A stretch of 9,641 bases of DNA, taken from positions 8,688 through 18,328 of the forward strand of contig JAYEMH010000003.1 of NCBI GenBank assembly GCA_034717985.1, in the 5' to 3' direction. This document shows, in pieces, positions 1,592 to 9,022 of the stretch. Made by a program: the position numbers and the translations under genes. The DNA is from JAYEMH01 sp034717985 [NCBI: Candidatus Ratteibacteria bacterium] (GTDB lineage Bacteria; CAZDME01; JAYEMH01). The stretch's first letter is position 1. Each line of letters opens with the position of its first letter. A model generated the notes under the pieces. That model had not been told where the DNA came from. It worked only from the letters and a program-made list of their open reading frames with translations, and made no database searches.

Positions 1592-2233
1592 TTATTTCAA
1601 TAAACCAAGAAGCTTTTCCTGAGCTTCTTCAAGAGGCAAATCCCCAGGAAAATTCATCAAGATTTCTTTCTCGTTATAATATTTAATCAGCGGCCGGGTC
1701 TCTTCGTTATATACCTGTAATCTCTTTATGATTGTCTCTTCCCGGTCATCCTCCCGGGCATAAAGCTCTCCCCGGCAGCGGTCACAGATACCTTCTTCCC
1801 GGGGCGGCATGTTTTTAATATGATAATTAACCCCGCAGTTTCGACAAACCCGCCGTCCGGTAAGCCGGCTGATAATAAGTTCTTCAGGGGTAACAAAGTT
1901 TATAACTTTTTGAATCGGCCTTTCTTTACCCAAATACTTATCCAGGGCTTCGGCCTGAGCGACTGTCCTGGGAAAACCGTCAAGAATAAATCCATCCTTA
2001 CAGTTTAAGCTGTCAAGCCGCAGTTTTATTATTTCAATAACTAACTGGTCCGGAACTAATTCACCTTTTTGAATATACGGTTTAACTCTTTCTGCCAGAA
2101 GGTTATTTTGTTTCACCATCTCTCTCAATATATCGCCCATAGCGATATGGGGAATATCTGCTTTTTCGCTCAAGGCTGCTGCTTGAGTGCCTTTTCCTGC
2201 TCCCGGTGGGCCGAAAAAAATTAAATTTTGAAT
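1592..2233 (-). CDS. adk: Adenylate kinase, apparently started at ATT
   Basis: Adenylate kinase interconverts ATP plus AMP and two ADP in the cytoplasm. With the start proposed here the protein has 213 residues, the usual length. It has the P-loop GPPGAGKGT (8-16), DGFPRT (85-90), and a long LID domain holding Cys130, Cys133, Cys150 and Cys153, a four-cysteine zinc site, followed by REDDREETIIKRL. The first TTG in frame (2171-2173) would delete the whole P-loop, so it cannot be the start. Between the in-frame secY stop (2237-2239) and the P-loop there is no ATG, GTG or TTG. ATT at 2231-2233 gives MQNLIFFGPPGAGKGT, matching the family N-terminus. The AMP-site motif usually ending in Thr-Gly-Asp reads IPHIAMGD, with Met in place of Thr. 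The family call is certain; the start codon is inferred. Confidence 0.93.
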   Translation of the reverse strand: MQNLIFFGPPGAGKGTQAAALSEKADIPHIAMGDILREMVKQNNLLAERVKPYIQKGELVPDQLVIEIIKLRLDSLNCKDGFILDGFPRTVAQAEALDKYLGKERPIQKVINFVTPEELIISRLTGRRVCRNCGVNYHIKNMPPREEGICDRCRGELYAREDDREETIIKRLQVYNEETRPLIKYYNEKEILMNFPGDLPLEEAQEKLLGLLK

Positions 2234-2236
2234 TTT

Positions 2237-3559
2237 TTAGTACCTTCCCTTTATTTTACCTTTTTTGATAAACCCTTCGTAATGACGCATCATCAGATGT
2301 GATTCAATCTGACGGATGGTATCCAGGGTAACGCCGACAACAATCAAAAGTCCGGTCCCTCCGAGAAAACTGGCCACTAAGGAGGGAATCTTCAAGCCGC
2401 TGGATACCAGGGTAGGAAATTCGGCCACAGCAACCAGATATACCGCTCCGATTAAAGTAATCCTGGCCATAATATGGTCAAAGAATTCTGCCGTGGGGCG
2501 TCCCGGTCTTATTCCCGGAACAAACCCGCCGTATTTTTTCATGTTGTCGGAGACATCGTTGGAGTTAAAAGTAATAGCGGTATAGAAAAAACAGAAGAAA
2601 ACGATCAGGGCGCCGTTCACCAATAAATAAATCCACCCTCCCTGGTTCAAATATTCCGCCGCTTTCTGCATCCAGCCAACGCGGGCAAATTGAGCCATGG
2701 TCGCCGGCATCATCATAATAGATGAAGCGAAAATAACGGGAATTACCCCTGAATGATTAACCCGGAGAGGAATATAAGTGCTTTGCCCGCCGTACATTTT
2801 TCTCCCGACGATGCGCCGGGCATACTGCACCGGGATATTGCGCTGTCCCTGGCTTAGGATTATTACCGCCATAATTACACCGACAAACATCACCACTAAA
2901 AACAACAATTTAAACAGATGTATTTGCCCGGCCGTAAAAAGGATGCCTAAATTATGCAGGGCCGAAGGAAACCGGGAAATAATTCCGGCGGTTATAATTA
3001 AAGAAATACCGTTTCCAATTCCCCGCTGCGAAATTTGTTCTCCCAGCCACATAATAAAGATGGTGCCCGAGGTTAAGGTAATAACGGTTATAATTCGAAA
3101 ATGCCACCCCGGATCTAAAACAATAGGAGACGATAAGCCAAAACTGCGGTGCAGGTTCTCCAACCAGAAACTAATCCCGAAAGATTGAACGGTGCTTAAA
3201 AGCACGGTTGCGTAACGCGTATACTGATTGATTTTTCTTCTTCCGGCCTCTCCTTCTTTGGAGAGCCTTTCCAGTTGCGGAATAACTACCGTAAGAAGCT
3301 GCAGGATGATAGAAGCGCTAATGTAAGGCATAATGCCCAGGGCAAAAATGGTCAGCCGGCGGAAAGATCCACCGGAAAAAAGATCCATAATACCTAAAAG
3401 CGTCCCTTGAGCCTGGTTAAACAATTGGCTTAAGGCCTCGCCGTCTATACCCGGGGTAGGAATGTGGGCTCCGATACGAAAAACAAATAGCAGTCCGACG
3501 GTAAAAATAATTCTCTTCTTTAGCTCTGGAATTTTAAATATGCTCTGGATTGCTCCCAT
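2237..3559 (-). CDS. secY: Protein translocase channel subunit SecY
   Basis: SecY is the inner-membrane channel of the Sec translocon, working with SecE, SecG and SecA or the ribosome to export or insert proteins. The 440-residue product has the usual length and ten hydrophobic segments. The first spans roughly residues 16-36. TM2, starting after the plug loop, contains FALGIMPYISASIILQLL (72-89). The cytosolic loop EGEAGRRKINQYTRYA (102-117) precedes TM3. GEQISQRGIGNGISLII lies at 173-189. The ribosome/SecA-binding loop FVPGIRPGRPT includes the conserved Arg351. The C-terminal tail ends with MMRHYEGFIKKGKIKGRY. The ATG at 3557-3559 has AAGG 7 nt upstream, overlapping the rplO end. Its TAA stop lies in the same frame as, and 3 nt before, the proposed adk start. 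Confidence 0.98.
   Translation of the reverse strand: MGAIQSIFKIPELKKRIIFTVGLLFVFRIGAHIPTPGIDGEALSQLFNQAQGTLLGIMDLFSGGSFRRLTIFALGIMPYISASIILQLLTVVIPQLERLSKEGEAGRRKINQYTRYATVLLSTVQSFGISFWLENLHRSFGLSSPIVLDPGWHFRIITVITLTSGTIFIMWLGEQISQRGIGNGISLIITAGIISRFPSALHNLGILFTAGQIHLFKLLFLVVMFVGVIMAVIILSQGQRNIPVQYARRIVGRKMYGGQSTYIPLRVNHSGVIPVIFASSIMMMPATMAQFARVGWMQKAAEYLNQGGWIYLLVNGALIVFFCFFYTAITFNSNDVSDNMKKYGGFVPGIRPGRPTAEFFDHIMARITLIGAVYLVAVAEFPTLVSSGLKIPSLVASFLGGTGLLIVVGVTLDTIRQIESHLMMRHYEGFIKKGKIKGRY
2243..2250 (-). promoter_or_regulatory. Ribosome-binding site supporting the ATT start of adk
   Basis: The minus strand reads AGGGAAGG inside the last secY codons, followed by 9 nt (TACTAAAAA) and then ATT at 2231-2233. 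Purine content and spacing fit a Shine-Dalgarno for that codon. The seven-nucleotide stretch upstream of the P-loop offers no other plausible start, so this site decides the call. Confidence 0.6.
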
Positions 3560-3568
3560 CGAAAATCC

Positions 3569-4060
3569 TTATTTTATCAATTCGGCCCGGCCGCCATGGG
3601 CTTCAATTTTTTGCCGGGCATTTTTACTCAAGGCGTGAACTTTGACAACTAAAGGTTTCTTTAACTCCCCTTCGCCTAAAATTTTTACTCCGCTATTCTC
3701 TTTCTTAATCACCCCTTCTTCAGCCAAAACTTCAGGAGTAACCACTGTATCCTTTTTAAACCGGTTCAACCGGGAAATATTAACTATGGTGAAAGATTGG
3801 CGGAAAATATTGGTAAATCCCCGCTTGGGAATCCGCCTGACTAAAGGCATCTGTCCGCCTTCAAATCCCGGCCTTTTCCCGCCGCCAGAACGTGACTTCT
3901 GGCCTTTATGCCCGCGGGTGGAGGTTTTTCCGTGGCCGGAACTTGGTCCCCGGCCGACTATTTTTTTTCGCTTTTTTGCTTGAAAAGAATGGTGAAGCCT
4001 GTTCAATCCAAGAAGCGGTTTCACGGCCTCTTTTTGTGCTTTAGTCTTCTTCGAGGACAT
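3569..4060 (-). CDS. rplO: 50S ribosomal protein L15
   Basis: L15 is a late-assembly large-subunit protein that threads an extended, glycine-rich N-terminus into 23S rRNA. The 163-residue product carries the signature [20 protein letters not shown] (35-54), [26 protein letters not shown] (57-82), and the C-terminal globular part ending [11 protein letters not shown]. The ORF is open upstream to 4144, but the ATG at 4058-4060 is chosen because AGGAG stands 9 nt before it and upstream residues show no L15 character. Even so, about 15-18 lysine-rich residues precede the usual family start; a TTG at residue 19 or 20 is a weaker alternative. The gene overlaps the end of rpsE by 20 nt, leaving no room for rpmD, which normally sits between them. 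Confidence 0.96.
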
Positions 4061-4586
4061 CGATAATTTCTCCTGTTCGCTTTCTTTTTTCAACTTCCTC
4101 TTTGGTTTTAAAGCTCTGCAGGGCCTGCACCGTTGCCCGGACAAGGTTTACCGGGTTATTAGTACCCAGTGACTTGGTCAAAATATCTTTCACCCCGCCT
4201 AAATCCAAAATGGCACGAGCCGAAGCTCCGGCAATAACACCCGTTCCCTTTCCGGCCGGGCGCAGCATAATTCTGGCGGCTCCAAAACGCCCGATAATCT
4301 CGTGCGGGATTGTTGTTCCTTCTAAAGGAATGGTAAAAATATTTTTCTTAGCGTGCCCCGACGCTTTAGCGATTGCCTCGGGAACACCATTGGCCTTGCC
4401 AAAACCATAGCCGATTTTACTTTTGCTGTCGCCAACGACCACAAGGGCGTTAAAACTAAAACGTTTGCCACCCTTAACGACTTTGGAAACCCGTTTAATA
4501 TTTATCACCCGCTCGGTAAATTCCGGTTCTTCACGGAAAGCTGATTCGATTTTTTCCCCGGCTTTTTTAGAAATTTTTTTCGTCAT
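4041..4586 (-). CDS. rpsE: 30S ribosomal protein S5
   Basis: S5 lies on the solvent side of the small subunit near the mRNA entry and affects decoding accuracy. The 181-residue product has the N-terminal double-stranded RNA-binding domain with [20 protein letters not shown] (28-47) and [14 protein letters not shown] (59-72). The C-terminal domain follows, with [20 protein letters not shown] (108-127) and [19 protein letters not shown]. The length is a little over the common 165-170 residues because of a charged tail. The ATG overlaps the rplR stop by one base (TAATG), so it is probably translated by reinitiation. The neighbours are rplR before and rplO after. Confidence 0.98.
4070..4074 (-). 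promoter_or_regulatory. Ribosome-binding site setting the rplO start
   Basis: AGGAG on the minus strand, 9 nt before the ATG at 4058-4060 and inside the rpsE coding sequence. It favours that ATG over the longer open frame that begins at 4144. Confidence 0.7.
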
Positions 4587-8318: not shown

Positions 8319-8339
8319 ATGCTAAACGCTAAATTCTAA
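8319..8339 (-). repeat. Three tandem TTAGNNT heptamers over the rpsC stop
   Basis: On the minus strand TTAGAAT, TTAGCGT and TTAGCAT follow each other without gaps. The first unit contains the rpsC stop codon TAG. The array occupies most of the rpsC-rplP spacer. Confidence 0.6.
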
Positions 8340-9022
8340 ATTTGTTTTTTCGTTTCCCGTCTACCTTCTGTCTTTTCCCGTTTTCCTCCCTCTTTTCTCT
8401 CTTCTTCTTGCTCCTGATAAATCCAAACTTTCACACCAATAGTTCCATAAGTCGTATGCGATTCGGCAAAGCCATACTTAACCTTAGCCGCTATAGTATG
8501 CAGGGGAATTTTACCTTCCTTAACACTTTCCGTCCGGGCAATTTCTGTCCCTCCCAATCGCCCTGAACATATAATTTTTATTCCGTCGCCGCCCCGCTGC
8601 ATTGTCTGGCTAACCGCTCTTTTCATCACCCGGCGGAAAGGAAGTCTTTTTTTGAACTGTAGAGCAATTCCCTCCGCTACCAGTTGGGGATGCAATTCCG
8701 GTTTATTTATTTCCTGAATATTAATGGAAATTTGCTTGTTAGTCATCTTTTGCAATTCGTCCCTGAGGCGGTCGATGTCGCTGCCTTTTTTTCCGATGAC
8801 TACTCCCGGACGGGCAGTATGAATATCAACGCGCAGCTTTTTATCCGTTTTTTCAAGCACGATTTTACCTACCCCGGCAAAGGATAAACTTTCCTTTATA
8901 AAATCTCTAATTTTAAGATCCTCTTGTAAAAAAAACCGGTGGTGTTTTTTAGCAAACCAGCGTGAATCCCAATCTTTGGTTACCACAAGTCTGAAACTTT
9001 TAGGATTTACTTTTTGTCCCAT
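8336..9022 (-). CDS. rpsC: 30S ribosomal protein S3, with a repeat-like charged tail
   Basis: S3 lies in the head of the small subunit at the mRNA entry tunnel, with helicase-related arginines and lysines. The 228-residue product begins MGQKVNPKSFRL. It has the KH type 2 domain with RPGVVIGKKGSDIDRLRDEL (71-90; GKKG loop at 77-80) and the C-terminal domain with RVMKRAVSQTMQRGGDGIKI (131-150), SGRLGGTEIARTE (153-165) and YGTIGVKVWIY (192-202). Residues 203-228 form a very charged tail containing a 7-residue near-repeat, KREKTEG then RRETKKQ. The ATG overlaps the rplV end by 23 nt; the upstream AAGG is weak. The S3 call is certain and the origin of the tail is open. Confidence 0.98.
   Translation of the reverse strand: MGQKVNPKSFRLVVTKDWDSRWFAKKHHRFFLQEDLKIRDFIKESLSFAGVGKIVLEKTDKKLRVDIHTARPGVVIGKKGSDIDRLRDELQKMTNKQISINIQEINKPELHPQLVAEGIALQFKKRLPFRRVMKRAVSQTMQRGGDGIKIICSGRLGGTEIARTESVKEGKIPLHTIAAKVKYGFAESHTTYGTIGVKVWIYQEQEEERKEGGKREKTEGRRETKKQI

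What the first reader, a model, noticed from the sequence alone, without database searches (positions are those of the whole stretch)
2231..2239. adk appears to start at ATT, in frame with and 3 nt after the secY stop
The secY stop TAA (2237-2239) and the adk P-loop are in one frame, separated by AAA ATT CAA AAT TTA ATT TTT TTC. None of these is ATG, GTG or TTG. The first TTG downstream would delete the whole nucleotide-binding P-loop. ATT at 2231-2233, behind AGGGAAGG, restores a normal 213-residue enzyme. AUU starts are very rare; the known cases, E. coli infC and pcnB, are kept low or are sensitive to IF3. Here it could throttle adk relative to secY or tie it to IF3 levels. Alternatives are readthrough of the secY stop giving a SecY-Adk fusion, or an assembly error in the A/T-rich run.
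Basis: partly seen in the sequence, partly recalled or inferred. Interest (0 to 1): 0.65.

Follow-up and report, generated by a model that had tools for sequence, protein, structure and literature searches.

The report
adk gene apparently starting at AUU
In this uncultured bacterium the adenylate kinase gene has no normal start codon and seems to begin at a rare AUU directly behind the secY gene, but no relative examined shares this, so a one-letter sequence error is still possible.

Summary
Between the secY stop (TAA, 2239-2237, minus strand) and the adk P-loop there is no ATG, GTG or TTG in frame. ATT at 2233-2231 gives a normal 213-residue Adk, 8 nt behind AGGGAAGGT. Adk is intact and evolves at an ordinary rate. 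The window is a deep branch beside Omnitrophota; SecY identity in the groups searched reaches 66% at most. All 221 distinct adk genes of relatives have ATG, GTG or TTG near the expected place, so the ATT is not conserved. In Omnitrophota, infC itself often starts at ATT or ATC (13 clear cases in 30), so such starts are credible in this group. The junction (+3 nt) lies in the range for termination-reinitiation, as in 115 of 179 relatives. The SD is moderate: better than at most relatives' adk, below the infC median. Best reading: a lineage-specific AUU start carried by SecY-Adk coupling (0.6). Main rival: one substitution error (0.3). Regulation by IF3 is untested. If real, it is a new member of a known kind; interest is modest.

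The parts
2237..3559 (-). secY, ATG start, TAA stop at 2239-2237
   Evidence: up to 66% identity to SecY of Omnitrophota genomes
2242..2250 (-). AGGGAAGGT, Shine-Dalgarno-like, inside the secY 3' end
   Evidence: -7.8 kcal/mol against a recalled 16S tail, stronger than 69% of 179 relatives' adk sites
2231..2233 (-). ATT, the most likely start codon of adk
   Evidence: leaves the first strand and P-loop whole; 3 nt after the secY stop
1592..2233 (-). adk, adenylate kinase with a four-cysteine lid, 213 aa
   Evidence: NF001380 266.7 bits over cut-off 251; TIGR01351 244.9 over 168; Pfam ADK and ADK_lid; lid cysteines 130, 133, 150, 153 kept
2171..2173 (-). TTG, first in-frame canonical start codon, too late (removes the P-loop)

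Best explanation
adk in this organism starts at AUU (2233-2231, minus strand). Shown: no canonical start is available, the gene is intact, an SD-like site lies 8 nt upstream, and the secY stop is 3 nt upstream. Inferred: ribosomes that finish secY reinitiate on the AUU with help of the AGGGAAGGT site, so Adk output is tied to SecY translation and lowered by the weak codon. It is a lineage-specific departure from the usual start, not a device conserved in the relatives examined. Sensitivity to IF3 follows from general knowledge of AUU codons and was not tested.
For: No ATG/GTG/TTG in the available stretch and none in the other frames near by. Adk above the equivalog cut-off; all 26 columns that are at least 99% invariant are kept; ordinary rate, rank 0.41 among 167 Omnitrophota. 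SD -7.8 kcal/mol, 5th of the 18 genes scored in the window (rpsM and rplO at approximate start positions), stronger than 69% of 179 relatives' adk sites and near the median of TTG-started adks (-8.2, n=17; GTG -6.85, n=18; ATG -5.9, n=144). secY-adk distance +3; 115 of 179 relatives lie between -4 and +5; reinitiation was measured at overlaps and short gaps in E. coli and Haloferax pairs (PMC10666635, passages). Omnitrophota infC: 15 of 30 have no canonical codon from the previous stop to the core, 13 of these with ATT (8) or ATC (5) 7-10 codons before it. The other 13 well-anchored genes of the window have canonical starts.
Against: All 221 distinct adk genes of relatives have a canonical start, 199 of them one codon further on, where the window has CAA. 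The SD is below all 18 infC sites that I picked by eye, though 4 of these are nearly equal (-7.9 to -8.1; median -11.9), and published AUU/AUA starts in S. aureus come with extended SDs (PMC13009471, passages). Even a 2-nt gap cost 5, 20 and 70% of reinitiation in three E. coli pairs (PMC10666635, passage). At the two adk AMP-site positions the window departs from nearly all relatives. The folded start region is no more or less structured than shuffles (z -0.07). No reads, no close relative, no genome.
Confidence: 0.6

Rival explanations
1. Sequence or assembly consensus error: the true codon is ATG and a single base is wrong (plus-strand base 2231).
For: One substitution gives an ordinary start at the same place. 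None of 221 relatives lacks a canonical start. Genes without one are very rare in comparable assemblies (1 of 2213), so a real one is a priori rare too. The SD lies in the range of ATG- and TTG-started adks.
Against: The other 13 well-anchored genes of the window are open with canonical starts and the A and T runs keep frame, so there is no sign of a poor consensus. The error must hit one particular base. ATT is one of the few codons that can start natively. An indel does not explain it.
Confidence: 0.3
2. The gene is inactive or starts at TTG 2173 as a remnant, another adenylate kinase serving the cell.
For: AMP-site residues Ala-Met replace the usual Ser-Thr, the only such pair among 181 distinct motifs, and Gly47 is Ala.
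Against: All 26 columns at least 99% invariant are kept, ordinary rate, family cut-offs passed, full-length open frame.
Confidence: 0.06
3. Readthrough of the secY TAA yields a SecY-Adk fusion.
For: The two genes share a frame and one stop codon, then AAA, separates secY from the ATT.
Against: In frame by chance one time in three; a stop separates the genes in 218 of 218 distinct relatives with adjacent genes; UAA followed by A is not a readthrough context known to me (recalled).
Confidence: 0.01
4. Initiation at another codon or by a mechanism not considered (second ATT at 2221-2219, AAA, programmed shift).
For: A second in-frame ATT exists at 2221-2219.
Against: It would leave three residues (Met and two Phe) before the P-loop glycine, against six at the commonest start of relatives, and it lies 20 nt from the SD-like site.
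Confidence: 0.03

Closest known systems
infC (IF3), AUU start in E. coli (recalled; also stated in PMC5472188, passages read)
   Same: No canonical start; near-cognate AUN codon behind an SD
   Different: In Omnitrophota infC such starts recur (13 clear cases in 30), mostly with stronger SDs; here one lineage, moderate SD, a metabolic gene
Borrelia burgdorferi pncA/bbe22, AUU start (PMC13398362, abstract read)
   Same: Metabolic enzyme whose annotated later start would cut off needed N-terminal residues
   Different: Shown by experiment and structure; plasmid gene; here prediction only
S. aureus cvfC1 (AUU) and ccpN (AUA) (PMC13009471, passages read)
   Same: Near-cognate starts; about 10% of AUG expression in reporters in poor medium, up to 30% for ccpN in rich medium
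   Different: Conserved and with extended SD; here neither was found
Streptomyces sigR GTC start repressed by IF3 (PMC5472188, passages read)
   Same: Non-canonical start in a two-gene operon that affects the ratio of neighbours
   Different: IF3 control shown there; untested here

Membership tests
Genes with a native AUU/AUC/AUA start | No ATG/GTG/TTG in frame between upstream stop and conserved core | tested here: met
Genes with a native AUU/AUC/AUA start | Near-cognate codon at proper distance from an SD | tested here: met
   AGGGAAGGT 2250-2242, 8 nt before ATT
Genes with a native AUU/AUC/AUA start | Strong or extended SD, as at infC of relatives | tested here: inconclusive
   -7.8 against -7.9 to -13.0 (median -11.9) at 18 hand-picked infC, 4 of them at -7.9 to -8.1
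Genes with a native AUU/AUC/AUA start | Non-canonical codon conserved in relatives (supporting feature, not strictly defining) | tested here: not met
   0 of 221 distinct adk genes of relatives; no close relative available
Genes with a native AUU/AUC/AUA start | Correct base in the genome (read support) | not testable with these tools
   no reads, no whole genome
IF3-controlled genes | Expression falls with excess IF3 and rises in infC fidelity mutants | not testable with these tools
   needs experiment
Translationally coupled pair (termination-reinitiation) | Overlap or very short gap between stop and start | tested here: met
   +3 nt; 115 of 179 relatives at -4 to +5
Adenylate kinase (NF001380/TIGR01351) | Profile score over the curated cut-off, P-loop and lid present | tested here: met

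The most novel reading that the evidence does not exclude
A deep Omnitrophota-like lineage has put its adenylate kinase, the enzyme that sets the adenylate energy balance, under an AUU start that works mainly by reinitiation from secY and answers to IF3 level, tying energy metabolism to translation initiation capacity.
Probability: 0.15. Interest if true: 0.55.

Novelty: new member of a known kind. Interest (0 to 1): 0.3.

Why it matters
A start codon other than ATG, GTG or TTG is missed by a standard ORF list: here it offers only a 193-aa product without the ATP-binding loop. If real, an enzyme of central metabolism lives on a weak start codon, perhaps because the preceding gene delivers the ribosomes. 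The survey also shows that ATT/ATC starts of infC recur in Omnitrophota, so automatic annotation of infC in that phylum deserves a check.

Tried and rejected
Own genome search: none held. Plasmid DNA search for the adk-secY stretch: no match. Closer relatives: 384 genomes drawn from the phylum of G001, 82 of the phylum of L071's genome, 7 of the phylum of L073's genome, and 147 drawn from the class of G034 (Adk query): over near-full length none was closer than 66% SecY or 57% Adk identity. Viral contigs: one 43-residue SecY match of no use; the junction pattern with the doubtful base left open: none. Rfam: none. Structure at the start: ordinary. Indel in the A or T run: rejected. Decaying gene: ordinary rate. 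Literature: no paper in the library holds 'adenylate kinase', 'secY', 'start codon' and 'AUU' together; that says little about the wider literature. A substitution-error test by near-invariant residues was uninformative: 3 of 308 near-invariant residues differ in the window (rpsC 2, map 1), which a deep branch could explain.

Rows dropped. In one search, rpsE, rplO and rpmC gave many false 'none' rows because their N-termini did not align; I left them out of the 2213, and rplV because only 3 sources held it. Hits that began beyond query residue 20, duplicates and frames cut by contig ends were dropped. The first adk counts (181, 41) used a weak duplicate check; one search recounted: 308 sources, 256 with an adk hit, 34 duplicates removed, 222 left including the window. 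Before this recount I had the total wrong by one (222 relatives instead of 221).

Full report
What is there. The window carries a ribosomal protein operon on the minus strand: rplV, rpsC, rplP, rpmC, rpsQ, rplN, rplX, rplE, rpsN, rpsH, rplF, rplR, rpsE, rplO, secY, adk, map, infA, and the start of rpsM (gene names by my reading of the translations, with matching order in relatives). The secY stop TAA is at 2239-2237. The next codons in the same frame are AAA ATT CAA AAT TTA ATT TTT TTC GGC, leading into the Adk P-loop GPPGAGKGT. No ATG, GTG or TTG is present before the P-loop; the first is TTG at 2173, which would give 193 residues without the P-loop. In the two other frames a stop lies at 2253 and 2258 with no canonical start behind it.

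The gene is a real adenylate kinase. The translation passes NF001380 (266.7 bits, cut-off 251) and TIGR01351 (244.9, cut-off 168) and Pfam ADK and ADK_lid. All 26 columns that are at least 99% invariant in 196 aligned relatives are kept; of the columns at least 95% conserved, three differ (S31A, T32M, G47A). Its mean identity to an outgroup is ordinary (rank 0.41 among 167 Omnitrophota). It therefore most likely needs a working start. In relatives the commonest start is the codon after the window's ATT, so ATT adds one residue.

Which organism. A tree of 14 concatenated proteins (109 rows, midpoint-rooted) groups the window, on a long branch, with 51 loci of Omnitrophota (support 0.999). SecY identity reaches 66% at most in 384 genomes of that phylum, 58% in two other groups over near-full length. 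No close relative and no own genome are available.

Relatives. Of 222 distinct adk genes (308 sources, 34 duplicates removed), the 221 that are not the window's all have ATG, GTG or TTG between 7 codons before and 2 codons after the ATT position, 199 of them at the codon where the window has CAA; only 3 start at the ATT position itself (first counts). Over 14 well-anchored genes, 1 of 2213 non-window genes has no canonical codon in the available frame. So the ATT is not an old feature of the relatives examined, and genes without a canonical start are rare in this operon.

Positive control. The same reading finds non-canonical starts where they are expected. Of 58 Omnitrophota genomes searched, 56 had infC, and the 30 best matches were read. 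In 15 of these 30 no canonical codon lies between the previous stop and the conserved core, and 13 of the 15 show ATT (8) or ATC (5) 7 to 10 codons before it, some in closely similar genes; two of the 15 show neither. The other 15 have at least one canonical codon, which in some is a plausible start (for example ATG in L299, TTG in L305) and in others part of the SD. Initiation on AUU/AUC is therefore credible in the nearest phylum, at infC.

Signals at the adk start. AGGGAAGGT (2250-2242) pairs with the 16S tail (recalled) at -7.8 kcal/mol, fifth among the 18 genes scored in the window, stronger than 69% of 179 relatives' adk sites, close to the median of TTG-started adks (-8.2) and stronger than that of ATG-started ones (-5.9). 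At 18 infC genes chosen by eye the range is -7.9 to -13.0 with median -11.9; four of them are about as weak as adk here. The start lies 3 nt behind the secY stop; 115 of 179 relatives lie between -4 and +5, with -1 (43) and -4 (35) commonest. In six tested gene pairs reinitiation was almost abolished by about 20 nt; a gap of 2 nt cost 5, 20 and 70% in three E. coli pairs (PMC10666635, abstract and passages). Reinitiation is itself lowered by excess IF3, less so with an SD (PMC2268962, passages). The local fold is like shuffles (z -0.07).

Error or real? A single base (ATG read as ATT) would explain everything. The other 13 well-anchored genes of the window start canonically, and the A and T runs keep frame, so the consensus looks sound, but neither reads nor a sister genome can be consulted. 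Published cases outside infC, Borrelia pncA (PMC13398362, abstract), S. aureus cvfC1 and ccpN (PMC13009471, passages) and Streptomyces sigR (PMC5472188, passages), show that it happens. I put a native AUU at 0.6 and an error at 0.3; these are judgements, not computed.

Mechanism. Most likely SecY ribosomes terminate at UAA, stay near, and reinitiate at AUU under the SD. Reporter work in S. aureus found about 10% of AUG expression for such codons in poor medium (PMC13009471, passage), so a penalty is expected; how large it is with coupling is unknown. Control by IF3 is a deduction from the codon alone.

Verdict. Observation confirmed; interpretation partly supported; if real, a new member of the known class of AUU-started genes, in a core metabolic gene.

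Noticed in passing
window 2143-2138 (minus strand, adk residues 31-32 counted from ATT): AMP-site Ser-Thr (STGD) is Ala-Met (AMGD) in the window Adk: of 181 distinct motif matches, window included, 174 have ST, 4 AT, 1 SA, 1 SS, and only the window AM. The threonine is recalled to matter for the choice of AMP against UMP; specificity may differ.
   Followed up: partly
L279-L308: infC of Omnitrophota often starts at ATT or ATC behind an SD (13 clear cases in 30), so automatic annotation there deserves a check.
   Followed up: partly
window 4041-4066: No room for rpmD (L30) between rpsE and rplO, which overlap; the gene is not at its usual place (usual place recalled).
   Followed up: no
L140 (infA): infA has an in-frame TGA directly after its ATG and no other canonical start in the available frame; error or unusual start.
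   Followed up: no
window rpsC (8336-9022) residues 13 and 78; map (842-1591) residue 82: Three near-invariant residues differ in the window; rpsC also ends in a charged Glu/Lys/Arg-rich tail.
   Followed up: no
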